The position numbers and the translations under genes are program-made. This document shows positions 16,858-34,202 of a DNA stretch of 64,000 nucleotides, piece after piece. Location of the stretch: the NCBI GenBank assembly GCA_035772405.1, contig JAYKKM010000250.1:2004501-2068500 (forward strand). Reading direction: 5' to 3'. The notes below the pieces were generated by a model. The model made no database searches and was not told the origin of the DNA. It saw only the letters and a program-made list of their open reading frames with translations. Origin of the DNA: Chrysogorgia sp. JL179-B06 (taxonomy: Eukaryota; Cnidaria; Anthozoa; Scleralcyonacea; Chrysogorgiidae). Each line of letters opens with the position of its first letter. Position 1 is the stretch's first letter.

Positions 16858-17017
16858 AGTAGTATAGAGAGTGGCGGTACGAGCTCAGTCAACGTCAACC
16901 GTAATATAAACACCAAAACATCGCCAAATTTGTGTCGAGCCACAACTTAGCGATGTTTTGGTGTTTATGTTTTACAATCGACGTTGACTAACTCGCACCA
17001 CCACTCTCTATACTACT
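16858..17017. repeat. 160-bp palindrome forming the left tip of the Polinton
   Basis: The outermost AGTAGTATAGAGAGTGG returns inverted as CCACTCTCTATACTACT at 17001-17017. Inside are further matched arms (AACACCAAAACATCGC and its complement GCGATGTTTTGGTGTT). The arms are not identical (GTACGAGCTCAGTC against GACTAACTCGCAC), so each tip has two distinguishable arms. Confidence 0.85.
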
Positions 17018-17116
17018 ATGGCAATCATTAGTCATTCTAAACACCCCTCCCATGTTTTCTACTCAATTGATAAGAAATACTAAAATAACTGTTTTCGCTA
17101 AATTTAAAGCTAGAAT

Positions 17117-17267
17117 GTGTCGTTTCATCATTTTCACGTCTTTAAAAAGTGGAGAATGTCGTTTCAACATTTTCGCGTATTTAAAAAAAAAGGCATAGTG
17201 TGCCACTTCAACGTTTTCACACATTTAAAAAAGTAGAAGGTGTCATTTCAGCATTTTTACATTTTTG
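17117..17267 (+). repeat. Four ~41-bp degenerate tandem repeats in the TIR
   Basis: Units start near 17117, 17158, 17200 and 17240, each with TGTCRTTTCANCATTTT followed by a C/G-containing pair and TTTAAAAA. They are mirrored at about 33795-33945. Iterated sites inside a viral terminus may bind replication or transcription proteins (inference). Confidence 0.6.
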
Positions 17268-17428
17268 TTCAACAAACCACCGACGCGTTCTGCTGCTGTC
17301 TCACAAATTCACGCGCGAAAAAAAAAACCACCAGATTTTGATTCTAGTGGTGATGTTTATCCAAATGGATGGCGAAATGGCGCTCTTTTGATTGGCTAAC
17401 AACGTTAGCTAACAAATAGCCAACTACT

Positions 17429-20400
17429 CTACGAATTAGTCCGTTTGCTCACTACAATGTTTTTGTGACCATACGCGTAGGAGTCAATACCATTTTCTAA
17501 AAGGTATCGTTTATCGTCAAAACAGGATAACGACACTTTGTTAATTTCATAACTACCTAGCTGATGCTTGACACTTCTAATGGTCTTCATTGTGTGTCGC
17601 AATTGTTTCTGCTCGAGTAACACACTTTTATAATCTTCGTGCTTAATCACTTTTTTAATTATATTCTTTCTAATACCTTTAGCAGTTTTCCCACCACCCC
17701 CATCCTCTTTCAAATAGCTATACATTTTACTGCGCAACCCGACGAACTCAATAATTGGTGTTCCAGCGCACTCGTCCTTCATCTTGCCAATGACTTTCTT
17801 GTTCTCTTTGAAAGCGAATGGGTTGTCTGCAGGGTAATCGCTATTGTCAAACTTTTCGCGCTCCTCCATGAAGTCAGAATAAACGTCGTCAGTTTTGATT
17901 GTGTACAACAGACTGTCAGTGTCGGTGAAGTGTAGTCTGCAGGTATCGCTAGAGTACTTTTTCATGATATAGTTGTAGTGGAAGTCATACATCAACGTTT
18001 TGCTCAAGTCTAGTATGCACATACCCACATATGCAGGTCTATTTAGTGTCAACGTTTCTTTGACTTTGTGGACAGCGACTAAATTCTCGCTAAATATCTT
18101 GCAAGACACAAACGTAGGCTTTGAGACAAGCTTTTCTAACTTTTTCTCGGTGGTCACTAATCTTACATCCACACGCTTCCTCAAATTCTCCATTGTTTTT
18201 CCAAACACACTGTTGTTCATCAACTTGAAGAAGTCCTTCTCAAAAGCGTTCTTAGCCGCAGTTCTTTTGACTGTGTTAAAGTCGATGTACTTGCCCAACC
18301 ACTTAGACTGGTCGAACTGTAGGACCCTATGAATCTTTTTGATTTTCAATCCAAGATCCATGTACAACTGCAGATTTCCATAGTGACACACGTACTTTTT
18401 TTTGTCCATCAAATTAGTCACCAGCTTTTTCACACCACCAACACTCACGTTAAACTTATTTTTGATTTTCGTGCAGTACTCTGACAACATGTCGACAGTT
18501 ATCTCCATCTTTTCAGGAGCCAGCGGGTAATCGTTGTGTAGGTCATGCAAATGGGTTGGATACTCCAAGTCGACCTCAAGCAGTAAACCTTTTTTACTAT
18601 TGTTGTGATACTCACGCAGATTAACCTTTTTTATTTCTTTCTCAGTCAACCACTTGAAGCCACCTGTAGGTAGACTTCGACTCATTGCCCACCCATATAA
18701 ATTGTTGGCGTCAAGGTACATCAAATACTTCGACTCTTGCGCTTTATCGTACCCCTTCATGTATTTATTATTCGCCACACCATGTCTGTTGCATATGTAG
18801 CTCACACCACCACGCATACCTAATTCTACGAACTGGAACATGTCGATGTCGGACAATAATTCGAGTTCTACTCCAGTCATCTTCAGCATGGCATCCCAAG
18901 CCAACCCAGGCGATGTGAAATAATGGCAAGGGTCTAATTTATACTCACGATGGCACGTCTTTCTAAAGTTCTCAAAAACGTCGGCAAGCAAGAGCACATC
19001 GCTTTTCAAATACAGGTCGTGATACCCACCCATACTTTCAACGTCGAAGTAGTCCCACACGTCGATGGCACGCTCGTGCATTTCTTCCGTGATGTGCTCA
19101 TCGTTCAGAACGCTGTAGAAATCTTTTTTGGAGGGTAGCTCGCGCTCGTCGAATTTTTCAAAGGAGTTCATATAATCATAGGGGTAGACTCCCTTTCTTG
19201 TCATTAGTGCCAACCCATCGTCGCGAAACACTTCTGACGTGTATTTGAAAGCGTCCCTTGGTAGGTTCTTCACCAAGTTGTCCAAAGAGCTACCCATGAA
19301 CTGAAAGCTGTCCAAAAATACCAAGTTTTTTCCAAGCATGAACGCCATGTACTTCTCCATGTTGTTCGGTATCACGTTAATATCTTGACCAAACTTACCA
19401 ATCTCCTGCATGATAAAATGACTATCGTAGCCACGTAAGTTATGAAAGATCACAGGAATTTTATCAGTCAACTTAAAGTTCACATTACAGTCACGATGCG
19501 CGGACCCTCTGTACTTACCTGACACGTGACAGTGGTCTCTCACTCTAACGTCGGCGCTAGTGTACTCAACGCTGCAAATATGACAACTCTTAGCCTCGTC
19601 GAAATTCTTCTTATCGTCGTCAGTCAGTATCATCTCTTTGTTAAAGTGACTTTCAGATGTTTCTTTACAATATTCAACAATTTCTAACATCTCCCCAATG
19701 AACTTGTTGACTGCATTTTCACCGCGATACACTTTTACTGGCTTACTGTACTCATTGTCATAGCAACAAACCAATTTATACCCATAACCACAGTCAACGT
19801 GCCTCTGGTAAGCGTTTGTGTAGCTACACTCGCTTGACAGCTTTGTTGTGTGCATCTTCTGTGTGATAGCCTCGAAGTCTGCGTACACCACAAATGGTAC
19901 GTTTAGCTGTCTACTAAAATTCTCATATTTCACTTTCGCACCTTTTTGCGGCATTTTAATAGCTTGCTTCCCATTAATGACCAAACATACTTCAATGTGG
20001 CTTTCAAGCACGTCCTCTCGGGTGAAGCACTGCAAACAATACCTACAAAAGTGCTTTCTCGCCTCATGCTTTGTTTGCCGGTGCATGAATTTATTAAAAT
20101 CGCGAATGTAGACGTAGTGCTTGTTACCTACGTCATTAGTTATCAACAACAAGTCCATATGGTCAGGGTACACCTCCTTAGAAACGTACACAGGGAATGG
20201 CTGCTTATTTTCGTACCCAAAAACATTTATGCTAATATCGTTTGCCTTTTCGATCTTGTTGTAGTCTTTGACTGATACTGGGAAGTCAATTCCGTCATAG
20301 TTCAGCTCACTGACATGCCTAGCGTACTTCGACGTTCTATCAGAGTTTTTTCCAGCAGGGAATTTATGTGCGAGGTGACACCATCTAAAGCACTCGTTGT

Positions 20401-21025
20401 CATCACCGTTATTTACGTTTATCAAACCCTTCTTACTGTTACGCAGCTCCTTTGGCAACGCAATGTAGCTACTCCCACGCAGAGGTCTGTAAATAGCGAT
20501 ATTGACGTAGTGCGCATCTATTTTGTCGATAGTCCATCCAGACCCCTCAGATAACCACCCAGCTATCCGCGTCAAGATCTGTTCCGACCCATGATTGGCG
20601 ACACCCTCGATGTCGTGCTCGTTAATGACGACGAACGTTTCGCTGTTAAAGTAGGCAGTTTTGTACGTGGTCTTATTGAGTTCTAAAACTTTCTCAAAAG
20701 TGACCTTGACTGTCTCCACCACTTTCATTCCATTGGTCTCACCTAGTTCACGTCTCAAAAGGTTAGTGACAGCACTTCTACTACCATTTACCTGATTGAT
20801 GTCTCTGTCGTCAATTACCTCGACTCCATAAGACCTTGTGAACCCTCTCAGTGCTCGATCCAACAAATGTGTTGACGGTGTGAGGTCTTGGGCTACAGGT
20901 TGTGTTTCTCGATCTCTAAAGAAGCCGTGAACGTTGGTCGCTTCATCTGTTAGTGAATTGACAACGGCTGCACTCGTCTTATGCGCCCGTCTTTTTGTCA
21001 GTGGGTTTTTCGCAGTCCGACTCAT
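17429..21025 (-). CDS. polB: Protein-primed-type family B DNA polymerase (Polinton PolB), 1198 aa
   Basis: Copies the element. Visible blocks in order: a C2H2-like zinc site (~327-347, KHFCRYCLQCF); Exo I YADFEAI (~381-387); a Cys/His cluster CHIC…RDHCHVSGKYRGSAHRDCN (~481-514), known from Polinton polymerases and resembling endonuclease VII zinc sites; Exo II FHNLRGYDSHF (~527); Exo III YLKSDVLLLADVF (~672); motif A DANNLYGWAM (~772); motif B KNAFEKDFFKLMNNSVFGKT (~925); and motif C TDTDS (~1034). All catalytic acidic residues are present, so both polymerase and proofreading activities look intact. The ~320 N-terminal residues may include the protein-primer region. The last seven codons lie inside the TIR. 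TATATA sits about 15 bases before the start. It is first of a five-gene minus-strand block, 6 bases after the next gene upstream. Confidence 0.97.
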   Translation of the reverse strand: MSRTAKNPLTKRRAHKTSAAVVNSLTDEATNVHGFFRDRETQPVAQDLTPSTHLLDRALRGFTRSYGVEVIDDRDINQVNGSRSAVTNLLRRELGETNGMKVVETVKVTFEKVLELNKTTYKTAYFNSETFVVINEHDIEGVANHGSEQILTRIAGWLSEGSGWTIDKIDAHYVNIAIYRPLRGSSYIALPKELRNSKKGLINVNNGDDNECFRWCHLAHKFPAGKNSDRTSKYARHVSELNYDGIDFPVSVKDYNKIEKANDISINVFGYENKQPFPVYVSKEVYPDHMDLLLITNDVGNKHYVYIRDFNKFMHRQTKHEARKHFCRYCLQCFTREDVLESHIEVCLVINGKQAIKMPQKGAKVKYENFSRQLNVPFVVYADFEAITQKMHTTKLSSECSYTNAYQRHVDCGYGYKLVCCYDNEYSKPVKVYRGENAVNKFIGEMLEIVEYCKETSESHFNKEMILTDDDKKNFDEAKSCHICSVEYTSADVRVRDHCHVSGKYRGSAHRDCNVNFKLTDKIPVIFHNLRGYDSHFIMQEIGKFGQDINVIPNNMEKYMAFMLGKNLVFLDSFQFMGSSLDNLVKNLPRDAFKYTSEVFRDDGLALMTRKGVYPYDYMNSFEKFDERELPSKKDFYSVLNDEHITEEMHERAIDVWDYFDVESMGGYHDLYLKSDVLLLADVFENFRKTCHREYKLDPCHYFTSPGLAWDAMLKMTGVELELLSDIDMFQFVELGMRGGVSYICNRHGVANNKYMKGYDKAQESKYLMYLDANNLYGWAMSRSLPTGGFKWLTEKEIKKVNLREYHNNSKKGLLLEVDLEYPTHLHDLHNDYPLAPEKMEITVDMLSEYCTKIKNKFNVSVGGVKKLVTNLMDKKKYVCHYGNLQLYMDLGLKIKKIHRVLQFDQSKWLGKYIDFNTVKRTAAKNAFEKDFFKLMNNSVFGKTMENLRKRVDVRLVTTEKKLEKLVSKPTFVSCKIFSENLVAVHKVKETLTLNRPAYVGMCILDLSKTLMYDFHYNYIMKKYSSDTCRLHFTDTDSLLYTIKTDDVYSDFMEEREKFDNSDYPADNPFAFKENKKVIGKMKDECAGTPIIEFVGLRSKMYSYLKEDGGGGKTAKGIRKNIIKKVIKHEDYKSVLLEQKQLRHTMKTIRSVKHQLGSYEINKVSLSCFDDKRYLLENGIDSYAYGHKNIVVSKRTNS

Positions 21026-21031
21026 TGACTT

Positions 21032-21604
21032 CTATATACTACACTTGTTTTTTTTCCTAAACCACTCGTCGTAATAATTGTCACCACTTTCACACCATCC
21101 TAGCTTTGGGTACACCACCCCAAACAAATTATCGTCGAACAAGTCTTTCACCTTCCCGTCTTTGAGGTCTAACACCTTCTTGAGTGTCTTGACTCGTCTT
21201 CTATGACACAACCTAATAATGTAGTATCCATATCTGCTGACATTTCTACCCTTGATCAAATTGCATGAGTACAACACATTGACAACTTTCAAGAAGTCCT
21301 CTTTTATCAACTCAAGGTGCTCACCCTTCACAACGTTCCGTAGTCTCCTCCCCATCCACCAAGACCGTTTGTGAACGCTTTTTAATCGCGTGAGTCTCAT
21401 GTCGCTGTAACTCTGAGTGTAACCCCATTCGGTGTCGCCACACTTTGGACATGCGTACCCACCACAGTCAGTCACATGTTTCACAACGTCACAATCCGAG
21501 CAGTAGTAAAGCCTGAAGGTGCCTCCACACTCAATTTGCGTCTCACTCGCGATTTCGTCAATTGTGTAACCATAACTCATCTGCCTCATAAGTTTGTCCA
21601 TCAC
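21032..21604 (-). CDS. Probable VLTF3-like late transcription factor, 190 aa
   Basis: Two CxxC pairs (C35/C38 and C52/C55) form a zinc ribbon near the N-terminus. A basic helical middle follows, with a C-terminal region carrying a RNVSRYGYYIIRL block and ending close to LGW. This order resembles the poxvirus VLTF3 family of late transcription factors, which have a zinc ribbon, a conserved R-x-F/V-x-S/Y-Y-x-Y block and a C-terminal LGW, and which also occur in some Polinton-like viruses and giant viruses. The match was made by eye. A generic zinc-ribbon protein is the alternative. Start: the second Met (M2) is equally likely; a TATAAG motif lies about 10 bases upstream. It precedes PolB by 6 bases, implying shared transcription. 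Confidence 0.5.
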   Translation of the reverse strand: MMDKLMRQMSYGYTIDEIASETQIECGGTFRLYYCSDCDVVKHVTDCGGYACPKCGDTEWGYTQSYSDMRLTRLKSVHKRSWWMGRRLRNVVKGEHLELIKEDFLKVVNVLYSCNLIKGRNVSRYGYYIIRLCHRRRVKTLKKVLDLKDGKVKDLFDDNLFGVVYPKLGWCESGDNYYDEWFRKKNKCSI

Positions 21605-21628
21605 TCTTATACTACTCCAACATTTTTT

Positions 21629-22048
21629 TCACCGAACTAGCACCCATAGCGCTATTCCACTACCCAAACCTAACGCGCTAACAAACAATAATTGGTATTC
21701 CTTCATTTCCGCACTCGGTTGGTAGTAATCCGCAATCTTCGGGAGGTCAGTGAACACTCGTCCGCTGTACCGTATGGTCATTACGCTTCTAAGTTCTTCC
21801 AACGCGTGGTTTGTGTCATTGATGTCAGCATTAGCATCAGAGAGCCGTTGTCGTAAACGCTGGATCTTATCTTTCTTGGCGACTTCATTTTCATACCACA
21901 CTTCTTTCGCACTGGCTAACTGCTCCAACGCATGGTTGTGTCTTTCCATCTCAGCTTCATAACCCGAGTGATTAAACTTCGAAAACATAAAGCCAGCGCC
22001 TGCAAAAGCCACTGCATTAAATATCCCTCCAGCCACAACACTCGCCAT
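21629..22048 (-). CDS. Unknown membrane protein with coiled coil, 139 aa
   Basis: The N-terminus is a Gly/Ala-rich hydrophobic segment (~4-22), followed by ~85 charged heptad-like residues (~28-95, Glu/Lys/Leu-rich) likely to form a coiled coil. A second hydrophobic segment (LLFVSALGLGSGIALWVLV, ~119-138) ends the protein. Two membrane anchors separated by a rod suit a virion membrane or assembly protein, but no family is recognised. It lies between the VLTF3-like gene (24 bases) and a second small membrane protein (4 bases) in the minus-strand block. Confidence 0.75.
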   Translation of the reverse strand: MASVVAGGIFNAVAFAGAGFMFSKFNHSGYEAEMERHNHALEQLASAKEVWYENEVAKKDKIQRLRQRLSDANADINDTNHALEELRSVMTIRYSGRVFTDLPKIADYYQPSAEMKEYQLLFVSALGLGSGIALWVLVR

Positions 22049-22052
22049 TAAC

Positions 22053-22289
22053 TTACGTTGATTTGAATGGATCTGTCGGTATCCACTTTTTTGATTGCGC
22101 CCATTTTACTAACAACGTTCCTGCACCAACAGCTGCAGCAAGTTTCACTGTGCCTTTAACAGTCTCTGGTGTTCCCAATGGTTCTCCCAAAGCCTTTTTA
22201 GAAATCATACTCACTGCCACAGCACCAGTCGTGACAAGTAACGCATCGTACAATTCGTTCATAAGTTCTTTTCGATCGATCGCAGACAT
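22053..22289 (-). CDS. Unknown small membrane protein, 78 aa
   Basis: It has an acidic/polar start, then a hydrophobic stretch (LLVTTGAVAVSMI, ~18-30) and a second Ala/Gly-rich one (VKLAAAVGAGTLLVKWA, ~47-63). It probably inserts in, or binds, membranes. There is no recognisable family. The start codon is directly preceded by TATAT, a spacing seen at several genes in this element. It is 4 bases upstream of the coiled-coil gene and 23 bases downstream of the next one. Confidence 0.65.
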   Translation of the reverse strand: MSAIDRKELMNELYDALLVTTGAVAVSMISKKALGEPLGTPETVKGTVKLAAAVGAGTLLVKWAQSKKWIPTDPFKST

Positions 22290-22312: not shown

Positions 22313-22657
22313 TTAAGAATCAAATGTGTCAAGTGCTGGACGACGAGTTCTACAACTTTCTGACACAGCTGGTGCAGTACTCACAGGCTCTAGTCGTGTC
22401 TCTTTTTCACTGCTAATTGTGTACCATAACGAGGCACCAGCAATGATAACACCAAGTGTTCCGACAATGTAACCATAGCTCCACTCACCACCCTGTTCTT
22501 CGTTAACTATCATTTCACGCATTTTCTTTTCTTTCGCAGCTTTCGATATCTCAGCCAACTTCTTACCAGCAGCGACGCGCTTTGGGTCCTTCACCTTAAC
22601 ACTTTTCACATCAGCCGTAATCTTCGCTTCAACAGCCGTCTGTGAGTCCTCAACCAT
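22313..22657 (-). CDS. Unknown protein with one membrane segment, 114 aa
   Basis: The N-terminal half is Lys/Ala/Glu-rich and helical (~1-60). One transmembrane segment follows (YIVGTLGVIIAGASLWYTI, ~65-83), then a short polar tail rich in Ser, Thr and Arg. This is a single-pass protein layout. It is the first gene of the left minus-strand block and faces the 22789 gene across a 130-bp divergent promoter region with direct repeats. Confidence 0.7.
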   Translation of the reverse strand: MVEDSQTAVEAKITADVKSVKVKDPKRVAAGKKLAEISKAAKEKKMREMIVNEEQGGEWSYGYIVGTLGVIIAGASLWYTISSEKETRLEPVSTAPAVSESCRTRRPALDTFDS

Positions 22658-22788: not shown

Positions 22789-23559
22789 ATGACTCAAGTC
22801 CAAGACATCGCAGAAGAGATGACTCAAGACCAAGCCCGCCAAGAAGAGGAGATCAACGCAATGCGGAGAATGTCCTTTGTCGATGCGTCTACCCCACAAG
22901 GCGCCTCTGGACCCAACGTCTTAAAAGGGTACTCGCAAGTCTTCAAGTTGTGCGACCCCGATCGTAGAAACGAAGAGGTGTCAAGACAATTTGGTACCCA
23001 GATTCTCTATACAAAGTTCGCTCATGAGGCTTGGGTCGAGCTTGATGAAGTTAGAGCCAACAGGATGGTTAACGAACTAGCCAAGATGATCCCCGTGTGG
23101 TGTTACTCACCGTTCAAACGTCTTACGCTAGCGAGTGACCACTACTTGAGCAACCCTTGCGAGTCCACCGCTACGCTACTCGGTAACTACCTCGAAGTGT
23201 TCTTGGCGACCCTTCTATGGAAACCATGCTCAACCAAACTCAAAGCGTGGCTACACCTCGCCGCAAACTGTGACGTTAACGTTTGTAGGGTGGGGTGTAA
23301 CGAAATACTGAGTGCGGGCGATATTATGAGTCACATACTCTCAGACGCTCACCTGGATTTTGTGCACGGCGGCGCGTCGTACAATTGTTACCCATGCGGT
23401 GTGGTTACCAACAACCCAATGCATCGCTCAAGACACGAGAGCTCGAGGTCCCATCTTAAAAACTTAGAGCTTCAGCGGATATTTAACAACGAGCAACAGT
23501 TGCCGCAAGAGGGGAGAGCGTTTCTCTGGAGGTATAGTAACCATGAAGAAAGTTGGTAG
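22789..23559 (+). CDS. Unknown Cys/His-containing protein, 256 aa
   Basis: The N-terminal ~25 residues are Gln/Glu-rich. The middle (~60-165) is mixed alpha/beta in character. The C-terminal third has many Cys and His, including a CYPCG…H…H arrangement (~205-225) that could bind zinc. I considered an adenain-type protease because one is otherwise missing, but the family's His-Trp and Cys-Gly signatures are not visible. The function is unknown. It ends 17 bases inside the thymidine kinase start, so the two are probably expressed together. GTATAACATA sits just before the start codon. Confidence 0.8.
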   Translation: MTQVQDIAEEMTQDQARQEEEINAMRRMSFVDASTPQGASGPNVLKGYSQVFKLCDPDRRNEEVSRQFGTQILYTKFAHEAWVELDEVRANRMVNELAKMIPVWCYSPFKRLTLASDHYLSNPCESTATLLGNYLEVFLATLLWKPCSTKLKAWLHLAANCDVNVCRVGCNEILSAGDIMSHILSDAHLDFVHGGASYNCYPCGVVTNNPMHRSRHESSRSHLKNLELQRIFNNEQQLPQEGRAFLWRYSNHEESW

Positions 23560-24115
23560 ACTAGAAATCGTGATTGGTCCCATGTTTGCAGGAAAAACAA
23601 CAGAGACTCTTCGTAGGTTAATCACGTTAAGTAAGTCAGGGCTCAAAGTCCTCTACATGAACAACACAGGTGACACTAGGCGAACTGACCACGCGTTCTC
23701 CACACATCGTCAGACCATTGTCGTTGGATCAGACAGTTTACCTGCGAAGTTAATCACCAACCTCCCGAGTTCTTCCGAGATAGCTGATTATGACGTCATC
23801 GGAATTGACGAAGGCCATTGGTACTCTGGGTTACTCCCAATTATTCACGAGTACATCAAAGCTGGCATTCATGTCATTATTTGTGGTCTCATAACAACGG
23901 AGCACTTAAAAAGAATTGGTGAACTCGACACACTCTTCCCAATGGCAGACGACATCACATTTCTAAAAGCGTATTGCGCCGTTTGTCGCGACACTTACAG
24001 AACAACTGTTGAAGCGCCATTCAATTGGAGATATAATCCAGGACCATCATTCGTTGGTGGTGCTGAGCAATATCGCGCAGTGTGCAGACGTCACCATCCT
24101 TCCACACAAAATTAA
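23543..24115 (+). CDS. tk: Thymidine kinase, type II (TK1-like), 190 aa
   Basis: Phosphorylates thymidine to dTMP, supplying dTTP for replication in non-dividing cells. Walker A GPMFAGKTTE lies at ~12-21. The DEGHWY segment (D89, E90) matches the TK1 DEGQFF motif with the catalytic Glu. A zinc site is formed by CAVC (145/148) and CRRH (181/184). The C-terminal VGGAEQYRAVCRRH block is the TK1 lasso/zinc signature. Length is typical of viral TK1. It overlaps the upstream gene by 17 bases. TK is familiar in poxviruses and other large DNA viruses and phages, and unusual in Polintons, so it was probably acquired from a virus, phage or host. The frame is intact. Confidence 0.95.
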   Translation: MKKVGRLEIVIGPMFAGKTTETLRRLITLSKSGLKVLYMNNTGDTRRTDHAFSTHRQTIVVGSDSLPAKLITNLPSSSEIADYDVIGIDEGHWYSGLLPIIHEYIKAGIHVIICGLITTEHLKRIGELDTLFPMADDITFLKAYCAVCRDTYRTTVEAPFNWRYNPGPSFVGGAEQYRAVCRRHHPSTQN

Positions 24116-24161: not shown

Positions 24162-24413
24162 ATGAAGCGTCCAATGTACCGTAGAAACATTTTTTCACAC
24201 AGTGGTCAGAAGGTTTGTGAAATAAGTAGAGAAAGAGTTTCACAGATATTTTTTACCAAGTTAAAAACGTCTTTTAAAAATGCTAGAGCAGTTGTCACCT
24301 CAAGTGTCGTCTCAACAATGAGAACGAGTGCTAATTCGACTTATTACTCACTGTCTAAAAAGTCTCTTTACAATAGTGTCTCTCGTGGTTACTCAACGCT
24401 GATTTATTTTTAA
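24162..24413 (+). CDS. Possible small basic protein, 83 aa
   Basis: Open from an ATG 46 bases after the TK stop. Rich in Arg, Lys, Ser and Thr (starts MKRPMYRRNIF). The sequence between 24116 and 24355 has no other gene. A small basic protein could be a virion core or DNA-condensing protein, but no family is recognised and the 3' end overlaps the convergent BRO gene by 59 bases, so it may be a chance frame. Confidence 0.35.
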   Translation: MKRPMYRRNIFSHSGQKVCEISRERVSQIFFTKLKTSFKNARAVVTSSVVSTMRTSANSTYYSLSKKSLYNSVSRGYSTLIYF

Positions 24414-25152: not shown

Positions 25153-25293
25153 CTACTCGACATAGGTGCCACGCCTTTTATAGATCTGGTTTGTTGTGTA
25201 CCAATGCAGCAAATACGTTTTATTAGCCCTCAGTTTTCTACGTCGTCTGAAAAAGTCTCTAATGTTACGAGCTAGTTTTCTAAGCCAACCCAT
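25153..25293 (-). CDS. Possible very basic 46-aa protein
   Basis: A short frame fills the gap between the BRO gene and the myristoylated protein. It is strongly Arg/Lys-rich (FFRRRRKLRANK) with several Tyr and Trp. Its length and composition recall small DNA-condensing core peptides of adenovirus-like virions, but that is only inference from composition. It lies 9 bases from each neighbour, which favours a real gene. Confidence 0.4.
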   Translation of the reverse strand: MGWLRKLARNIRDFFRRRRKLRANKTYLLHWYTTNQIYKRRGTYVE

Positions 25294-26464: not shown

Positions 26465-27949
26465 CTACCTGAAGGTGTATTTGGTTACTAAATAGCCAGA
26501 CACCGCTGAGAACACTAAGATTATCGCTAACGTTGTCGTGTCTGACTCGCTTGTGACCACTGCTTTTCTCATAGGAATTGGTGCCGCACTTTCTTGGTGA
26601 ACTTTTTTAGCCACAAGATTACTTAGCGCCGTCACATTTTCTTGGTGAGCTTTTTTCTTCACGATTGTTGGCACTACTAATGAGTGAGTCACCATATTTT
26701 CTTGGTGGACTTTTTTAGCCGTGATTGTTGGTGTTGTTGCATTCAAGCTAGTGTTCACTCCAAATCTCATGGACTCTGTAGCAATCTTTAATAAGTTGTT
26801 GTACCCAGCGATTTTATTCTTGAGAATCACTAGGTTACTTGGCATTAACCATGTACTTGGTGACACTGCAAGATTTTGGACAACGTTGGTGTCTCTAATT
26901 GATTTATTCATGTTGAGAATCCATGTCGATACGTCGTACTGTACAACACTGTCAGAAAACAACTTGCGGAATTCTTGTTGGGTCTCTAGACTTCCTGCAG
27001 AACCACCAACGACTGATACACGTGTTCTCGCTTGCGCACCAAGTGTGGAGTACACAAAGGACTCTATGCTCTGATTTAGATATTGCAGTCCAATGTTGGT
27101 GAAGCCGTCTGAGAGTCGTGCGACGTATCGTTTGTAATCATTCTGAACGTTGTTGAGTGTGAAGACTCTGGATTCGCCTAGAGTGCCATCGCTCAGGACT
27201 TTATTCTGGTAATAATGTTTTCTAGGAATCTTAGAGATCTTACCGTACAATTCGGAAGCGTTGAATTCTCTACTTATTGATTTCATGGTCTCACCACCTT
27301 CCATTCTTCTGAGAAGTCTTCTAATGGTGAAGTACAAATGAAATCTCATCACACTTGTGACCACAGGGTGGACTTCTTGTGACACTGATAAATGTTGCAA
27401 TGACACCCCACAACAGAAACTCGCACAATACGTCGCAAACACAACGCGATAGTAAGATTCGCTGTCATCCCACTCTGATTTTGTCTTTGACGTGGTGACT
27501 CGCAAGACTGGCAGCTTTGACATGAAGTAGCTATTTTGGTTAACGAAAACTTTGAAGTTGTTCACTGGATAATTCAACACATTTTCTGTTGGATAACCAT
27601 CCCAAAGCCCCCAGTGGTTCTTATGACCTTTTGGTAGTGGTTGGATAGTTCCACCACCTTGCCATATTATTGGGAACTTACTATTGTGCAGCCACTTCCA
27701 CATGCTTTTATCATTTTTGAAGGTTGTGCTGGTTATGTCTGTGCTGAGGATGTCGTTGTTTCTGAAATATATGTCGACACTTAGGGTCTCACCATCTTGT
27801 GAAATATTTGGATTGAACTCGAATTTGCTTAAAGTGGCGTGAGGGTACTTTTTGATGAGGTCTGCCTTCGCGTCGTGTGCAGCCTTTGATGTGTTCGCCA
27901 TCGCACGTTTGTAATACTTTCCATAGTAATCATGAAGGGCTTTCTGCAT
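26465..27949 (-). CDS. Large unknown protein with C-terminal membrane anchor, ~494 aa
   Basis: The frame is open from 27961. The fifth codon (Met, 27949) directly follows a TATATTAT motif and is the likelier start. The protein is mostly soluble in character, with several Cys (…YCASFCCGV… ~180). It then has three short repeats of the type KKVHQEN / KKAHQEN / KKVHQES (~415-465), and it ends in a transmembrane segment (TLAIILVFSAVSGYLVT) with a short tail. A type II or tail-anchored virion protein is plausible. It is transcribed divergently from the minor capsid gene 22 bases away. I do not recognise the family. Confidence 0.8.
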   Translation of the reverse strand: MQKALHDYYGKYYKRAMANTSKAAHDAKADLIKKYPHATLSKFEFNPNISQDGETLSVDIYFRNNDILSTDITSTTFKNDKSMWKWLHNSKFPIIWQGGGTIQPLPKGHKNHWGLWDGYPTENVLNYPVNNFKVFVNQNSYFMSKLPVLRVTTSKTKSEWDDSESYYRVVFATYCASFCCGVSLQHLSVSQEVHPVVTSVMRFHLYFTIRRLLRRMEGGETMKSISREFNASELYGKISKIPRKHYYQNKVLSDGTLGESRVFTLNNVQNDYKRYVARLSDGFTNIGLQYLNQSIESFVYSTLGAQARTRVSVVGGSAGSLETQQEFRKLFSDSVVQYDVSTWILNMNKSIRDTNVVQNLAVSPSTWLMPSNLVILKNKIAGYNNLLKIATESMRFGVNTSLNATTPTITAKKVHQENMVTHSLVVPTIVKKKAHQENVTALSNLVAKKVHQESAAPIPMRKAVVTSESDTTTLAIILVFSAVSGYLVTKYTFR

Positions 27950-27970
27950 ATAATATACCATATGTTATAC
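27950..27970. promoter_or_regulatory. Shared TATA-type divergent promoter
   Basis: CATATAATATACCATATG lies between the start codons of the 498-aa gene (minus) and minor capsid gene (plus). It offers TATA-like words on both strands only a few bases from each start, implying very short or absent leaders. Confidence 0.4.
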
Positions 27971-28672
27971 ATGACGCGAAAGTTGACGGTATTCATTGAA
28001 GGCTTAGAAAAAGTTGTGTCCTTTGACAACAGCGTGATGGTTACGCACGATAACCCATGCATTATGGTCAAGACAGCCACTGTGTTTTGGGACTACAATA
28101 ACATATTAGATGGCGACGCCCCTCATCTCTCCGAGTTTAGTTACCCTTCGAGTGATCTTAAAAGTACAATAACGAGTGGAGGGTACACTAACTTCGACAC
28201 ACTAGTCAGACTATTAAAAAAAGACTTTAAAGAAAGGAGGGGTGCGGACCTTGAGATAGAAAAAAGAATGTTCACAGGTAGATGCGGGATTAGGGTTAGC
28301 GCCCCACTTAAGCTTGGCGAACTTGGGCCTCTATTTGGTTTCGCGAGGGATAGGGTGATTAAGGGTGACTCACTGTGGTACATTAGTCCAAACGAGGTCG
28401 ACATGCTTAGAGGTCTGAAGTACATAGAAATCTTATGTGATATTGTTGACCCTGAAAGCAATGTGGGTATTGATGGGAAGCGAAGCAGTGTGATCACAAC
28501 GTTGCCAATACCCACTGAACAGTCTTTGAATGGGTCAGTGCAACGTCATGTGGACATCGAGTCCAAGGTGAGAATTAAAAAAGGTGTTTACTCAAGTATG
28601 ACGTTTCGCATCAAACCAAATAACGGCGCTATTAAAATTGGTGCGGTGCTATTGGAACTGTATATTGTGTGA
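27971..28672 (+). CDS. Minor capsid (penton) protein, single jelly roll, 233 aa
   Basis: The frame opens at 27932. I take Met14 (27971) because the upstream codons overlap the divergent gene and the TATA-like element. The C-terminal half carries the pattern of Polinton penton proteins: YIEILCDIVDPESNVGIDG, then a …LPIP… turn and strands ending in GAIKIGAVLLELYIV (compare the family's DIVEPQ.VGD and final hydrophobic strand). The protein would form the five-fold vertices of an icosahedral capsid with the hexon-like major capsid protein at 31260. It is first of the right-hand plus-strand block; the integrase start follows 5 bases after its stop. Confidence 0.8.
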   Translation: MTRKLTVFIEGLEKVVSFDNSVMVTHDNPCIMVKTATVFWDYNNILDGDAPHLSEFSYPSSDLKSTITSGGYTNFDTLVRLLKKDFKERRGADLEIEKRMFTGRCGIRVSAPLKLGELGPLFGFARDRVIKGDSLWYISPNEVDMLRGLKYIEILCDIVDPESNVGIDGKRSSVITTLPIPTEQSLNGSVQRHVDIESKVRIKKGVYSSMTFRIKPNNGAIKIGAVLLELYIV

Positions 28673-28677
28673 ATTAT

Positions 28678-29781
28678 ATGGAGCTTGGTGTGGAAACAGA
28701 GCAAGGGTTGCGAGACATTTACTACAGCCCCAAGACTGGGTACAGTGGTGTAGAGAAATTGTATCAAAGTGCGTTAGGAGACGGATTGAAAGTGACTAGA
28801 AAAACAGTGAAAGAATGGTTGACAGCGCAGGACACCTACACTAGGTACAAACCTATTGTGAGAAGACACGAGTTCCGTGCGACTTTTGTTGGGTTTCTTG
28901 GTGAGGAGCTCCAAATGGACTTAGTGGACATGAGTAAGTATTCAAAACAGAATGGAGGTTATTATTGGATATTGACAGGCATTGAAATATTGAGTAGATA
29001 CGCTTTTGGAATTGCAGTTTATAGAAAAGACACTAAGAACATGACTAAGGCTGTTGGAAAATTGTTGAGTGACTTTAAAGATCAGTTTGGAACCACGCCT
29101 AAGTTAGCGCAATTTGACGACGGACTTGAGTTCTACAATGTTGGGGTGAAAAGTTTGCTGAAAGAGCGTGGTGTTGAATATTTCAGCACTAAGAGCGATA
29201 AAAAGGCTGCCGTTGTTGAGCGTTTTAACAGAAGTCTGAAGAGTGTTATGTGGAAGTACTTTTATACCCGTGGGACGTACAAATGGATTGATGCTTTGGA
29301 CCAGTTTGTAAGCAATTACAATAGCAGTGTGAACCGAAGTATTATGATGAAACCGAGGGATGTCAATAAGTCAAATGAAGGCGAAGTGTGGACCACTTTG
29401 TTTGGTCACCAATTTGCAGACAACCCATTACCAAAGTTTAGAGTTGGTCAATCGGTGAGAATTAGTAAATACAAGAGTGTGTTCACAAAGGGCTATGAAG
29501 CCAACTTCACTGAGGAGCTGTTTAAAGTGGTAAAGGTTATTCGTGGTGATCCGAATGTGTACGAAATTGAGGATCACACCGGTGAACAGATTATTGGTAA
29601 ATTTTATGAACAGGAATTATCGCTGGTTAATAAGAAACATGGCGACGATGTGTACAGAGTTGAGAAGGTGTTGAAAAGAAAGAAAGTCGGAGGGGAGAAG
29701 ATGGCGTTGGTCAAATGGTTGGGTTATGAGAGCAAACATAATTCGTGGGTACCAGAAAGCGATATTCAAAATGTGAGCTAA
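28678..29781 (+). CDS. int: Retroviral-type integrase with chromodomain, 367 aa
   Basis: Inserts the element and makes 6-bp duplications. The N-terminal ~60 residues form a helical DNA-binding region (GYSGVEKLYQSALG). The rve core has catalytic D81 (QMDLVDM), D147 (FDDGLEF) and E181 (VVERFNRSL). The last ~50 residues are a chromodomain (YRVEKVLKRKK…MALVKWLGYESKHNSWVPES), which may direct insertion to particular chromatin. The ATG at 28678 is chosen because upstream codons overlap the minor capsid stop. The layout is typical of Polinton integrases and all catalytic residues are intact. It ends 6 bases before the next gene. Confidence 0.97.
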   Translation: MELGVETEQGLRDIYYSPKTGYSGVEKLYQSALGDGLKVTRKTVKEWLTAQDTYTRYKPIVRRHEFRATFVGFLGEELQMDLVDMSKYSKQNGGYYWILTGIEILSRYAFGIAVYRKDTKNMTKAVGKLLSDFKDQFGTTPKLAQFDDGLEFYNVGVKSLLKERGVEYFSTKSDKKAAVVERFNRSLKSVMWKYFYTRGTYKWIDALDQFVSNYNSSVNRSIMMKPRDVNKSNEGEVWTTLFGHQFADNPLPKFRVGQSVRISKYKSVFTKGYEANFTEELFKVVKVIRGDPNVYEIEDHTGEQIIGKFYEQELSLVNKKHGDDVYRVEKVLKRKKVGGEKMALVKWLGYESKHNSWVPESDIQNVS

Positions 29782-29787
29782 TGTAAT

Positions 29788-31236
29788 ATGGCTGAAGGCG
29801 GGAGAGGCTTTGACGAGATGGAGATGGGAAACTCTGACAAGTATGAAGGTTGGAGTGACGAGCAATTAGAAAAGACGCTCGCCGATATCGAAGATGCTAT
29901 TCAAGGCGTGTACGGCAAGTACACTGGAGACAACATGCCGGAAGACGTTCGTGTTAATTACGACGACTATCAAGACCACGCGAAAAAGATAATGAGTGAG
30001 CTAGACGCGAGGCGAGGTGGGCAAAAAGAGACGTCATTTATTGATACTGATGATGGTAAGACGGTGACAATAAAGGGGACCAACACAGTAGTCCCCGCAG
30101 TGGAGTTTGTCGAGCAGGAGTCATATGGTGACGTCAATGACGAGAGTTTTAGTATAGCTTTTGAAGAGGAGGAGGAAATTGAGAGAAGGCTGGGCGAGCT
30201 AAAAGAATCCAACAAAAAGCTGGCAGAAAAACACATAAAAAGAATCAAGCTAATAAATAAGAAAATACGTAAATTGAGTGGAAAAACACTCGGCAAGGAC
30301 CACGCGTCAAGGGAGATAGTCAACAGGTCGCAGGTCACGGACTCAGAGGCTATTTTTTTCAAACCGATAAAGAAAGATGGTAAACCTGGGAAACCCAAAC
30401 TAATTCTAAAACCTGGGAAAAATAAAAAAAACTTGGTCTACAGTAAAGACGATAATAGTAAAAACGCGATTGAGCAGTTCAAACAGTTAGTTAGTCAAAT
30501 CCCTGAGAGCGCAGAAACAACAGCTGTCACAACAGAAGTAGCCCTAGATGATCCCCCAGTGATTGAGACAAAAGTGGACTACGACGACATACTTGGGTTA
30601 TCGTCAAACGAAAACCGTGATCTGAATGGTGTGCTTAATCCAAGCGAAAGCGTGTTGCGTGAGTCAAGAATAGGTGACACTGGCTCGTTGCAAATACAAG
30701 CAGACTATTTTCAAAAGGCGTTAGACGAAGAGCTTGGAAGATTGGTGGAGCTCGAAAAAAAAAAAGCTAGCCAAAGTGGTCTCACGAGTGACGAAGAGCG
30801 AGAGTACGCTGATTTGCTTGAAAGAGTGAGAGGACTTGAGAAAGCCAGAGACAGAACCCTAAGACAGCGCGAACTCGAAGAGGTTAGAGAGCGACAAGAA
30901 GTCGACATTGACAGATTTCAGAAATTTAAGGAATGGGCCAAAGAAAATATGGTTGGGTTGAGCGCTGTGGCAATTTCAATGGCTGGAATTATAACAACTA
31001 TTATTATCGCTGGGAGGTCTGCTGTTATGAAAGGCGCTATGGCCACGAGGTCATTCGCACAGGCTGTTAAGAATGCGATAATGAAGATGGGTCCATGGGC
31101 TGTTGGGTTGGCTAACTTAGTTTACAACGTGTTGACGTTGGGTGCAAAGGGTCTCGCTTGGTTGGCTCAAAATCTGTGGGTACTCGCGGTGGTACTTGCG
31201 TGGTTTGCTTATGATTATTACAAGCTAAAACGGTAG
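29788..31236 (+). CDS. Unknown virion-type protein, charged/coiled N-half and hydrophobic C-half, 482 aa
   Basis: Residues ~1-370 are highly charged, with two predicted coiled-coil stretches (~118-170, EEEEEIERRLGELKESNKK; ~300-370, LEKKKASQSGLTSDEEREYA) around a Lys/Pro-rich spacer. The C-terminus holds hydrophobic or amphipathic helices (~392-415 and ~440-477) and ends in a short basic tail. It sits between integrase and major capsid protein, where Polintons often carry structural genes. A membrane-active internal virion protein, comparable in role to adenovirus pVI, is a guess only. The frame is intact and no family is recognised with confidence. Confidence 0.8.
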   Translation: MAEGGRGFDEMEMGNSDKYEGWSDEQLEKTLADIEDAIQGVYGKYTGDNMPEDVRVNYDDYQDHAKKIMSELDARRGGQKETSFIDTDDGKTVTIKGTNTVVPAVEFVEQESYGDVNDESFSIAFEEEEEIERRLGELKESNKKLAEKHIKRIKLINKKIRKLSGKTLGKDHASREIVNRSQVTDSEAIFFKPIKKDGKPGKPKLILKPGKNKKNLVYSKDDNSKNAIEQFKQLVSQIPESAETTAVTTEVALDDPPVIETKVDYDDILGLSSNENRDLNGVLNPSESVLRESRIGDTGSLQIQADYFQKALDEELGRLVELEKKKASQSGLTSDEEREYADLLERVRGLEKARDRTLRQRELEEVRERQEVDIDRFQKFKEWAKENMVGLSAVAISMAGIITTIIIAGRSAVMKGAMATRSFAQAVKNAIMKMGPWAVGLANLVYNVLTLGAKGLAWLAQNLWVLAVVLAWFAYDYYKLKR

Positions 31237-31259
31237 CGATAAAACATATGTAAAGGTAT

Positions 31260-32498
31260 ATGAACGTCACGTCGGCAGAGTTGAGCCCTGGTTTTAGACG
31301 AGCAACTATGGGTGTCATAAAAGGGGTGAGAACGCAACACGTAATCACGTTGAACCCCAATAAAGTCAGTCCTGGCGAGGAACTTTACATTGATATACCG
31401 AAGCTCAAGGTTAGTAGCTGTTTGGTGCCTGGATCGTTAGGTTTAGTGTTCGACTTTAAGAATGCGAACGCCAAAAGCTGGTTCTTGAATAATGTTAGCA
31501 AGTTGTTGGTTGAGAAGCTTGTTGTGAGACTAGCTGGGGAGACTGTGTACGACAACAATGGGGAAAATTACACTGGTGTTTATCGCGACCTTTGGGAAAG
31601 TGTTACTGCGCGAGACCAAATGATTGACTATGGTATTGGTGGTGAGAACTTGAGAAAGCTAATTTCTAAGGATGACAGTGGTGCGACAAGTGGGAACGTT
31701 GCTAAAGTTAGTGACGCGTTAATGTTTGGTGTGATTGGAACAAAGCAGCGAATAAAACTTGGTAAAATCATGAATGACCATGGATTGTACGCTCCTTTTA
31801 GCATGAACAACAACTTGCAGTATGTGATCACACTTCCGAAGGCCGCAGACATCATGGTGGCGCAATCTGGTAGCGCTGTGGGCGGATACACTCTGGAGAA
31901 CCTCGAGCTTGAGTATGAGACGATTGATAACCAGGAGCTCGCTGATGAAATAGCGTCGGGTTATGCAAGTGGTCGTAGCTTGTCATATGAGCACATCACG
32001 TTGATGAAAACCACCGAATGGGACAAAGGCACGACCATTGTGAATGAAAACATTAATCTTCCAAGAAAAAGCATGAAGGCAATTGTGTTGCTATTCACAA
32101 ATAAGGTGCGAACAGACAGTGAGGAGTTTCTTTACCCAAATATTGATAGTGTTAGAGTCACAATCGAAGGTGTGCCAAATAGTGTGTACTCACAAGGCAT
32201 TCCGAAATCGAAGTTCTACGCAGAAGCGAAACGACTGTTTGGTTTGGGTGAAGAACACGCTCAGTTCATGACCATACAGAAGTTCTATAAAGATGGCTTT
32301 GCGTTAGTCATCGACTTGAGGAGTGTTCAAGATAATCGCAATGTCGCCACTGGCAAGAACATTGTAAACACACAATCTGGCGTGCTTCTTGAAATCACTA
32401 AAAAAGTGACGACTGCGAATGTCATGTGCAGGGTGTTTGTGATAAGTGATGGGTTGGTCAACTTCATGAACAATGGGTTGCAGTCAATCCAGTATTAA
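31260..32498 (+). CDS. mcp: Major capsid protein, double jelly roll (hexon-like), 412 aa
   Basis: Shows the conserved blocks of Polinton/adintovirus major capsid proteins: YIDIPKLKVSSCLVPGSLGL (~43), WFLNNVSKLLVEKLVV (~74), YRDLWESV (~107), KLGKIMNDHGLYAPF (~167), NLELEYETIDN (~214), GRSLSYEHITLMK (~238) and NENINLPRKSMKAIVLLF (~262). Trimers of this fold tile icosahedral capsids of adenovirus, virophages and giant viruses. The length is slightly compact. The start follows GTATATG. The ATPase begins 16 bases after its stop, as expected for a morphogenesis block. Confidence 0.93.
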   Translation: MNVTSAELSPGFRRATMGVIKGVRTQHVITLNPNKVSPGEELYIDIPKLKVSSCLVPGSLGLVFDFKNANAKSWFLNNVSKLLVEKLVVRLAGETVYDNNGENYTGVYRDLWESVTARDQMIDYGIGGENLRKLISKDDSGATSGNVAKVSDALMFGVIGTKQRIKLGKIMNDHGLYAPFSMNNNLQYVITLPKAADIMVAQSGSAVGGYTLENLELEYETIDNQELADEIASGYASGRSLSYEHITLMKTTEWDKGTTIVNENINLPRKSMKAIVLLFTNKVRTDSEEFLYPNIDSVRVTIEGVPNSVYSQGIPKSKFYAEAKRLFGLGEEHAQFMTIQKFYKDGFALVIDLRSVQDNRNVATGKNIVNTQSGVLLEITKKVTTANVMCRVFVISDGLVNFMNNGLQSIQY

Positions 32499-32513
32499 AT
32501 CAAACGTGAGTTA

Positions 32514-33113
32514 ATGGAGACTCCGTTTAATATGCTAATTGTTGGTATGACAGCTTGTGGTAAGACGCATTATTTGTTGGAAACATTGGAATCTGAGTAC
32601 TTTAGTAAATTTGACTACATTGTGTTGATTTGTCCTACTTTCGAGTGGAACAAAGCGTACCAAGATTGGAGATACATACGCGACCCCGACGTGTTAGCGA
32701 TAGACTGCGCGCAGGATAATGTTGACGCTGTTCTCAAGTGTGTAAAAAATATTTTTAAAGGCACTAACACTCTGATTGTGTTGGACGACTGTGCGAGCTC
32801 TCAAGATGTTAAGAATAGGACTAGTCAATTGGTCAACTTAGCTTTTAGTGCGCGACATTTTATGTTGAGCGTTATTGTCATCACACAACAACTGACGTCG
32901 ATCGCAAAACCGTATAGAGAAAACATTAGTAAGCTCGTTTGCTTCTACTGCCCAAGTAGGAGTGATATGAAGGTCGTTATCGACGATTACCTTGGAAACA
33001 TTAGCAGAGAAAAATCGTCGGCGATTGTGACCGCATTAAAAAATAATAAGTACGCTAGACTCGAAATCTCACTGCGCTATCCATACAGTCACGAAGTTGT
33101 TATTCCGCAATAA
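32514..33113 (+). CDS. FtsK/HerA-type genome-packaging ATPase (A32-like), 199 aa
   Basis: Powers DNA packaging into the capsid. Walker A GMTACGKT (~11-18), Walker B NTLIVLDDC (~85-93) with the catalytic Asp pair, and a sensor-like VITQQ (~122-126) are all present. Length and motif spacing match the small A32-type ATPases of Polintons, adenovirus-like elements and NCLDVs. It lies between the major capsid gene (16 bases) and the terminal myristoylated gene (4 bases), consistent with one late transcription block. Confidence 0.92.
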   Translation: METPFNMLIVGMTACGKTHYLLETLESEYFSKFDYIVLICPTFEWNKAYQDWRYIRDPDVLAIDCAQDNVDAVLKCVKNIFKGTNTLIVLDDCASSQDVKNRTSQLVNLAFSARHFMLSVIVITQQLTSIAKPYRENISKLVCFYCPSRSDMKVVIDDYLGNISREKSSAIVTALKNNKYARLEISLRYPYSHEVVIPQ

Positions 33114-33116
33114 AAT

Positions 33117-33626
33117 ATGGGTATAAGTAATAGCGTGATGGTAAAACGCAAAAGTGAAGAAAATCCCACGATTGAGGAATTAGTTGAGGACACTGATGAT
33201 ACTTCGACTGTGGAAGACAACATTGACGTTAGGAGATCCGAACTTATTAGACTGTCTGGTGATGGTGTGGTAAGTCAATCTGAAGCGTACATTAAAAAAG
33301 CGTCCGCAAAGGTTATCGACAAGATATGGCGCCAATATGAGTTGAAGAGAATGGAAATTGCAAACGCTTTTCTCACCGACTTGCTAATCAGCAAATTCGC
33401 CAGCTTACTGGATGGGTTGAACGCTATAGAAAACCCTGACGAACTAAATGACGAGCTGCAAAAAGACCCGTTACTAAAGAAAGACATTGAGAGCATCGTC
33501 GCGTTTGTGACGCCGTACGTGCCTTTCTTGGGCTTGTTGTCGGGAGGAATCACAACGTCGAAACATGTGTACGATCACCACTTTAAAAGTGAGACAACCA
33601 CTGAAAACAGTGAGCAAACGGACTAA
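33117..33626 (+). CDS. Terminal N-myristoylated-type protein, 169 aa
   Basis: Starts MGISNSVM with Gly2 and Ser6, a good N-myristoylation signal, and TATG/AATATG overlaps the start. An acidic stretch (~18-40) precedes a helical region (~50-130). A hydrophobic segment near the C-terminus (FVTPYVPFLGLLSGG, ~138-152) could reach a membrane. The last six codons and stop lie inside the right TIR, mirroring the polymerase gene at the other end. The family is unknown. A virion membrane or entry-accessory role is possible but unsupported. Confidence 0.75.
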   Translation: MGISNSVMVKRKSEENPTIEELVEDTDDTSTVEDNIDVRRSELIRLSGDGVVSQSEAYIKKASAKVIDKIWRQYELKRMEIANAFLTDLLISKFASLLDGLNAIENPDELNDELQKDPLLKKDIESIVAFVTPYVPFLGLLSGGITTSKHVYDHHFKSETTTENSEQTD

Positions 33627-34202
33627 TTCGCAAAGCGACTGGCTATTCGCTAGCTAACGTTGTTAGCCGATCAAAAGAGCACCATTTCGCTATCCATTTG
33701 GATAAACATCACCACTAGAACCAAAATCTGGTGGTTTTTTTTTTCGCGCGTGAATTTGTGAGACAGCAGTGGAACGTGTCGGTGGTTTGTTGAGCAAAAA
33801 TGTAAAAATGCTGAAATGACACCTTCTACTTTTTTAAATGTGTGAAAACGTTGAAGTGGCACACTATGCCTTTTTTTAAACACGCGAAAATGTTGAAACG
33901 ACATTCTCCACTTTTTAAAGACGTGAAAATGATGAAGCGACACATTCTAGCTTTAAATTTAGCGAAAACAGTTATTTTAGTATTTCTTATCAATTGAGTA
34001 GAAAACATGGGAGGGGTGTTTAGAATGACTAATGATTGCCATAGTAGTATAGAGAGTGGCGGTACGAGTTAGTCAACGTCGATTGTAAAACATAAACACC
34101 AAAACATCGCTAAGTTGTGGCTCGACACAAATTTGGCGATGTTTTGGTGTTTATATTACGGTTGACGTTGACTGAGCTCGTACCGCCACTCTCTATACTA
34201 CT
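33609..34202 (-). repeat. Polinton right terminal inverted repeat
   Basis: Inverted copy of 16858-17453. Includes the tandem units, the A/T tract (TTTTTTTTTTCGCGCG region near 33733) and the tip palindrome, and ends exactly at the duplicated GAGTTA. Confidence 0.95.
34043..34202. repeat. 160-bp palindrome forming the right tip of the Polinton
   Basis: AGTAGTATAGAGAGTGGCGG at 34043 and its complement ending at 34202 are the arms. Orientation relative to the TIR is the same as on the left, so both tips are in the same flip state. Confidence 0.85.

What the first reader, a model, noticed from the sequence alone, without database searches (positions are those of the whole stretch)
16858..34202. 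Intact Polinton/adintovirus-like element with an enlarged gene set
The sequence shows perfect 6-bp target duplications, near-identical TIRs, and ~19 open frames with no break. Along with the standard replication-integration-capsid set it carries a thymidine kinase, a BRO-N nuclease, a VLTF3-like factor, a fibre-like protein and several lipid- or membrane-anchored proteins. Such genes are familiar in poxviruses, other NCLDVs and phages. Their combination in one animal Polinton suggests a recently active virus bridging Polintons and larger DNA viruses.
Basis: partly seen in the sequence, partly recalled or inferred. Interest (0 to 1): 0.92.

Follow-up and report, generated by a model that had tools for sequence, protein, structure and literature searches.

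The report
Swarm of intact Polintons in octocoral
This 17-kb stretch is one of hundreds of copies of a virus-like mobile element, a Polinton, in what is likely a soft-coral (octocoral) genome; in the copies compared most core genes are open, and the copies, which differ like recombined viruses, were likely inserted recently and are predicted to come from a virus.

Summary
Window 16858-34202 is a full-length Polinton/Maverick: GAGTTA duplicated on both sides, AGTAGT...ACTACT ends, ~596-bp terminal repeats, 19 candidate genes. It is not alone: its end sequence occurs 1,332 times in the 781-Mb genome (control 0), which is at least 333 copy equivalents; the first 100 listed matches give 38 full-length pairs and 2 single ends. 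All 17 copies whose ends I read have perfect, different 6-bp duplications. Core genes differ between copies by dS 0.14-0.33 with dN/dS 0.05-0.15, while 9 of 17 copies have identical outer 500-bp ends: the diversity likely predates the insertions. The window copy is a mosaic (1,772 bp at 100% to two copies, other genes ~92%). Penton-like, 498-aa, 256-aa and 482-aa genes vary strongly beside a near-constant capsid-like gene. Thymidine kinase and a BRO-N/VRR-nuclease/C2H2 fusion are real; VLTF3-likeness is only suggestive. Each end is a 160-nt hairpin palindrome. A mitochondrial MutS gene makes the host likely an octocoral. "Bridging" Polintons and giant viruses is not shown: the BRO-N/VRR fusion is published from a dinoflagellate element, and the kinase looks more cellular than poxviral. 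No maturation protease was recognised; polymerase and capsid labels rest on motifs and recall.

The parts
16852..16857 (.). left target-site duplication GAGTTA
34203..34208 (.). right target-site duplication GAGTTA
16858..17453 (+). left terminal inverted repeat, begins AGTAGT
33607..34202 (-). right terminal inverted repeat, ends ACTACT
16858..17017 (.). terminal palindrome, folds to one long hairpin (-56.1 kcal/mol, z -15.5, 0 of 200 shuffles as good)
34043..34202 (.). terminal palindrome of the right end, same orientation relative to the end
17429..21025 (-). 1198-aa DNA polymerase B-like protein (motifs DANNLYG, KLMNNSVFGK, TDTDS; endonuclease VII-like insert)
   Evidence: sequence; Endonuclease_7 E 6e-4, below its cut-off, endonuclease VII PHROGs; no polymerase profile hit; motif labels recalled
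21032..21601 (-). 189-aa zinc-ribbon protein, possibly VLTF3/TFIIB-like
21629..22048 (-). 139-aa protein, looks membrane-bound with a coiled coil (read from the sequence)
   Evidence: the first part of P0185 resembles it, fused to a zinc-ribbon protein
22053..22289 (-). 78-aa protein, conserved in 10 of 10 copies
22313..22657 (-). 114-aa protein with one hydrophobic stretch (read from the sequence)
22789..23559 (+). 256-aa protein, strongly variable between copies (57-99%)
23543..24115 (+). thymidine kinase, 190 aa
   Evidence: Pfam TK E 9e-28, PDB TKs, 149 of 150 scored genome matches without stop
24162..24413 (+). 83-aa open frame, overlaps the next gene; doubtful
24355..25122 (-). BRO-N + VRR-NUC + C2H2 zinc finger protein, 255 aa
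   Evidence: the C2H2 match is below Pfam's cut-off
25153..25293 (-). 46-aa basic protein
25302..25511 (-). 69-aa protein starting MGACFS (lipid-anchor type start, recalled motif)
   Evidence: Pfam none
25512..26462 (-). 316-aa fibre-like protein
   Evidence: PHROG tail fibre E 8e-5 over residues 41-69; 95-97% in 4 of 4 copies
26465..27961 (-). 498-aa protein with a C-terminal hydrophobic helix, widespread in ENA contigs
   Evidence: 140 homologues; model pLDDT 79.7, no convincing fold match
27932..28672 (+). 246-aa penton-like minor capsid protein (label recalled), variable centre
   Evidence: PDB chance matches only
28678..29781 (+). retrovirus-type integrase with C-terminal chromodomain
29788..31236 (+). 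482-aa protein with C-terminal hydrophobic segments (read from the sequence); a second related stretch in 9 of 10 sister copies
31260..32498 (+). 412-aa major capsid-like protein (label recalled)
   Evidence: 96-100% between 11 copies, dN/dS 0.051; PDB none
32514..33113 (+). A32-type packaging ATPase
   Evidence: Pox_A32 E 1.6e-16
33117..33626 (+). 169-aa protein, MG- start

Best explanation
The window holds a full-length copy of a Polinton/Maverick in the genome of a likely octocoral, predicted to be the integrated form of a recently active, recombining virus-like population that would prime its own DNA copying, pack the DNA in its own capsid, and re-insert it with its chromodomain integrase. 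Shown: the anatomy, hundreds of copies by end count, perfect duplications in 17 of 17 copies read, purifying selection on the core genes, mosaic copies, one nested insertion. Inferred: the polymerase starts at the AGTAGT ends by protein priming; packaging uses the A32-type ATPase; integration makes the 6-bp duplication and may favour marked chromatin through the chromodomain. Inferred accessory roles: thymidine kinase keeps dTTP up in non-dividing cells; the BRO-N/VRR-nuclease/zinc-finger protein binds and cuts branched DNA such as extruded terminal palindromes and recombination joints, which would both clean up replicating ends and help make the mosaics; the zinc-ribbon protein acts as a late transcription factor. 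The variable penton-like and neighbouring proteins would carry cell attachment and be exchanged by recombination.
For: Ends and duplication; 17 of 17 copies with perfect, different 6-bp duplications and AGTAGT/ACTACT ends. 1,332 end matches against 0 in the control; the first 100 listed are 78 ends: 38 pairs spaced 17.4-19.3 kb, 2 unpaired. Core genes of 11 copies: dN/dS 0.051 (capsid-like), 0.069 (ATPase), 0.073 (polymerase), 0.081 (integrase) at dS 0.17-0.33; TK 0.062 and BRO-VRR 0.104 in 12 copies, while 9 of 17 copies show no left-right difference in the outer 500 bp. Mosaic: polymerase 3' part identical over 1,772 bp to two copies (eight others 92-94%), 256-aa gene 99.7% to a third, integrase 91-93% to all ten. 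One copy sits inside the capsid-like gene of another. CpG observed/expected 0.96 in the element, 0.71 in the flanks. Gene identities.
Against: No virion, transcript or infection data exist here. No polymerase profile hit and no capsid profile or PDB hit; these labels rest on motifs and recall. None of the 19 candidate genes matched a protease family in Pfam at E up to 1. Some sister genes are broken: in C295 the polymerase is split in two frames and the ATPase frame is shorter, and the 482-aa-like genes carry stops or split frames in 5 of 10 copies. Copies were picked by best end match or best TK match, which favours young and good ones, and equal ends could also come from gene conversion. IMG/VR gave no relative of the capsid-like protein, ATPase or 498-aa profile. 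No shared upstream motif was found for a dedicated transcription factor.
Confidence: 0.75

Rival explanations
1. A purely genomic transposon: it copies and re-inserts inside the germ line and never leaves the cell; capsid-like genes are kept for some intracellular role.
For: Hundreds of copies, nested insertion and clean duplications fit ordinary transposition. No particles or transcripts were tested.
Against: The capsid-like gene has the lowest dN/dS of the 14 genes measured (0.051) and the ATPase 0.069; the strongest variation is in penton-like and neighbouring genes beside a constant capsid-like gene, as expected of cell-attachment parts.
Confidence: 0.25
2. A provirophage-like guardian: the integrated elements wake up during infection by a large cytoplasmic DNA virus and use its factory, as mavirus does (recalled).
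For: TK and a VLTF3-like zinc-ribbon protein would suit a cytoplasmic factory.
Against: VLTF3 likeness is below significance; no shared promoter motif; no such large virus was looked for in this host.
Confidence: 0.12
3. An assembly chimera or an old, quiet family.
For: The window copy is a mosaic with unlike left and right ends; its end difference, if read as age, is larger than in most copies read.
Against: The same GAGTTA flanks both ends, which a misjoin of two insertions would hardly give; 16 of 16 other copies read have matching duplications; 76 of 78 listed ends pair at full-length spacing; high CpG and purifying selection.
Confidence: 0.04

Closest known systems
Vertebrate Mavericks/Polintons (PMC8097293; passages and section 7 seen)
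   Same: 6-bp duplications, terminal repeats of similar length (46-1,447 bp there), (AGT)2...(ACT)2 ends as the commonest motif, size 12.7-24.6 kb, accessory regions, intact copies (134 in 17 species there)
   Different: There: protease, ATPase in the polymerase module, modules mostly facing inward. Here: ATPase next to the capsid-like gene, no protease recognised, TK and BRO-N/VRR-NUC present, hairpin ends (ends of that kind are not mentioned in the parts seen)
Adintoviruses (PMC11071296; passages seen)
   Same: chromodomain integrase; duplicate pentons are reported there, and two penton-like frames occur in two of four sister copies here
   Different: OTU domain of the polymerase and hexon recognisability by BLASTP were not tested; TK-like genes are reported there for bidnavirus-type segments, not for adintoviruses in the passages seen
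Oxyrrhis marina polinton-like virus, OmPLV (PMC12721341; passages seen)
   Same: BRO-N fused to VRR-NUC, A32 ATPase, many endogenous copies
   Different: OmPLV has a tyrosine recombinase, a helicase-polymerase fusion, fragmented genes and a dinoflagellate host; here a retroviral-type integrase, mostly open genes, an added C2H2 finger and a likely octocoral host
Stony-coral polintoviruses (recalled, nothing seen: not found in the library)
   Same: anthozoan host, many copies (recalled)
   Different: not compared; their accessory genes and ends could not be checked here

Membership tests
Polinton/Maverick | 6-bp target-site duplication | tested here: met
   window; 16 of 16 sister copies
Polinton/Maverick | long terminal inverted repeats with AGTAGT...ACTACT ends | tested here: met
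   end motif per PMC8097293
Polinton/Maverick | retrovirus-type integrase | tested here: met
   rve E 8e-6, 26.5 bits, below its cut-off 32.6; IS481-type E 1.9e-9, far below that model's cut-off; PHROG transposase E 9e-11; chromodomain E 1e-10 above cut-off
Polinton/Maverick | A32/FtsK-type packaging ATPase | tested here: met
   Pox_A32 60.9 bits, cut-off 22.8
[quoted passage not shown]
   polymerase B motifs read in the sequence (labels recalled); no profile or PDB hit
Polinton/Maverick | double jelly-roll major capsid protein | tested here: inconclusive
Polinton/Maverick | Ulp1/adenain-type maturation protease | tested here: inconclusive
   no protease family at E up to 1 in the 19 genes; a remote or replaced protease is not excluded
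Adintovirus | polymerase with N-terminal OTU-like domain | not tested
   definition from PMC11071296
Adintovirus | hexon reciprocally recognisable by BLASTP | not tested
   no adintovirus hexon was at hand
Thymidine kinase family | Pfam TK above curated cut-off | tested here: met
   97.7 bits, cut-off 20.6
BRO-N/VRR-NUC fusion | both domains above cut-off in one protein, PD...ExK residues kept | tested here: met
   75.8/25.6 and 26.0/23.8 bits; D162, E178 nearly invariant, K180 invariant in 22 aligned sequences; their catalytic role is recalled
VLTF3 late transcription factor | zinc ribbon plus helical domain matching VLTF3 folds | tested here: inconclusive
   model pLDDT 69.5; best viral fold match is a VLTF3-like protein at E 7e-3, 10 of the 50 rows shown are named VLTF3 or VLTF3-like, none below 1e-3
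Octocoral (host) | mitochondrial MutS with HNH end; cox1 and cox2 adjacent and divergent | tested here: met
   that mtMutS marks octocorals is recalled; the MutS region lies in two frames in the stretch read

The most novel reading that the evidence does not exclude
The copies are the germ-line record of a DNA virus circulating in octocorals now: a population with a fixed replication and capsid core that swaps its vertex genes by recombination, carries its own nucleotide kinase, and ends in 160-nt hairpins that its BRO/VRR nuclease resolves, so that protein-primed copying and hairpin resolution work together in one virus.
Probability: 0.2. Interest if true: 0.88.

Novelty: new variant of a known kind. 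Interest (0 to 1): 0.72.

Why it matters
Polintons have virus genes, but particles from animals have been hard to show (PMC8097293 says none had been observed, start of abstract). A genome with hundreds of differing, recombined and largely open copies gives direct material to ask whether animal Polintons are living viruses: population genetics of capsid against attachment genes, insertion sites with clean duplications, and two enzymes (kinase, hairpin-cutting nuclease candidate) that can be assayed alone. It also places a BRO-N/VRR-NUC fusion, published from a dinoflagellate element, in a likely animal one.

Tried and rejected

In one search matches under 60% of the segment were to be dropped; one search shows near-full lengths for the five segments rechecked. 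In one search at most three hits per gene and piece were shown.

Full report
What is there. The element at 16858-34202 starts AGTAGTATAGAG and ends with its reverse complement; GAGTTA precedes and follows it. Its terminal repeats run about 596 bp. Between them lie 19 candidate genes, counting one doubtful 83-aa frame.

Genes. Thymidine kinase is firm (Pfam 97.7 bits, cut-off 20.6); solved structures put it nearer to cellular kinases (E 8e-20 to 3e-19) than to the poxvirus-type entry 2j87 (2e-13; that label is recalled). One protein joins BRO-N, VRR-NUC and a C2H2 finger (the finger is below Pfam's cut-off). It has 61 homologues, mostly on unnamed ENA contigs; of the 22 sequences aligned all carry the nuclease half and 20 a whole BRO-N half, and the PD...ExK residues are kept. 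The integrase has a chromodomain. The ATPase matches poxvirus A32. The 498-aa protein has 140 homologues, so I take it for a common gene of such elements (inference). The 189-aa zinc-ribbon protein has four homologues and a model whose best viral fold match is a VLTF3-like protein at E 7e-3; 10 of the 50 rows shown bear that name, none is below 1e-3. The polymerase has polymerase-B motifs in its sequence but no profile hit except an endonuclease VII-like insert and no PDB hit. Capsid-like and penton-like labels are recalled; searches gave nothing firm. No protease was recognised in the 19 genes.

Copies. The 26-base end occurs 664 and 668 times on the two strands with at most 2 mismatches, the control 0 and 0. 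A copy gives at most four such matches, because each end is a palindrome, so there are at least 333 copy equivalents; single ends would lower the number of whole copies. At 18.5 kb this is about 0.8% of the genome (my arithmetic). The first 100 listed matches collapse to 78 ends: 38 pairs spaced 17,361-19,339 bp and 2 single ends (pairing by distance, insides not read). Of the 40 TIR matches at 99-100%, 34 form 17 copies with the window; 17 of 17 have perfect 6-bp duplications, all at different sites.

Age and selection. In 9 of 17 copies the outer 500 bp of both ends are identical; the window has 13 differences, C348b 12, C436 26. Between copies the core genes differ at silent sites by 0.14-0.33 and dN/dS is 0.05-0.15 (11 copies for end genes, 5 for the fibre-like gene; 12 for TK and BRO-VRR). 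The simplest reading is that the copies diverged while their genes were in use and inserted later; gene conversion between ends could mimic youth. CpG observed/expected is 0.96 against 0.71 in the flanks, GC 42.8 against 36.6%. Of 150 scored TK matches, 149 have no stop, but these are the best of 1,944 candidates. Not all is intact: C295 has a split polymerase and a 190-aa instead of 199-aa ATPase frame, C478 a short 169-aa-gene frame, and the 482-aa-like genes carry stops or split frames in 5 of 10 copies.

Mosaics and variable genes. The window's polymerase 3' part is identical over 1,772 bp to copies C348a and C123 (eight others 92-94%), its 256-aa gene 99.7% to C438 (others 75-89%), its integrase 91-93% to all ten, its 169-aa gene nearest to C360. 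Its left end is of one type, its right end of another. The capsid-like protein is 96-100% alike between 11 copies, while penton-like proteins in four copies are 32-68% to the window and doubled in C54 and C438, and the 498-aa protein drops to 38% in C54 against 89-93% in the other three. DNA identity falls in the penton centre in 4 of 4 copies and, in C54, across the whole 498-aa gene, between flanks of about 0.9 or more.

Ends. The outer 160 nt fold into one hairpin (-56.1 kcal/mol, z -15.5); six variants in 34 ends reach -49 to -65, all in the same orientation. Protein priming at AGTAGT is my inference from the end motif shared with vertebrate Mavericks (PMC8097293) and the polymerase type. 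In the held library I found no paper that reports hairpin ends or a thymidine kinase in a Polinton (search listings; passages); most listed papers were not opened, the adintovirus founding paper is not held and no stony-coral study was found.

Host. The only COX1 matches in the assembly lie on a 62.7-kb contig with repeats of the gene every 19.0 kb, about three tandem mitochondrial genomes (length). cox1 and cox2 are adjacent and divergent, and the expected place holds a MutS with an HNH end, here in two frames. A mitochondrial MutS is known only from octocorals (recalled), so the host is likely an octocoral; a contaminating mitochondrion is not excluded.

Verdict.

Noticed in passing
window 16807-16857 and 34203-34260: The element sits in a degenerate TTAGGG-like repeat tract; the 40-bp flanks printed for the other 16 sites do not show it.
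   Followed up: partly
L027, L028 (C478): This copy is inserted in the capsid-like gene of another copy: flanks 92-93% to window 31877-32470.
   Followed up: yes
L038 (C295 right flank): 53 bp beyond the copy lies another terminal repeat only 83% alike, a sign of an older or sister family.
   Followed up: no
L047, L048 (C442 flanks): The two flanks hold a 142-bp inverted repeat, 96% alike, perhaps another mobile element around the insertion.
   Followed up: no
window 5761-8774: Frame-broken LINE-type retroelement, endonuclease plus reverse transcriptase.
   Followed up: no
window 46956-47507: Integrase core (PF24764, E 5e-52) of some other element.
   Followed up: no
G000:C460 (L083-L087): Mitochondrial contig with about three tandem genome copies; the COX1 frame is open under the standard code, so it uses no TGA; MutS split into two frames in the stretch read.
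   Followed up: partly
P0185: A 308-aa protein joins a part like the 139-aa protein to a zinc-ribbon part; the two genes are neighbours here.
   Followed up: no
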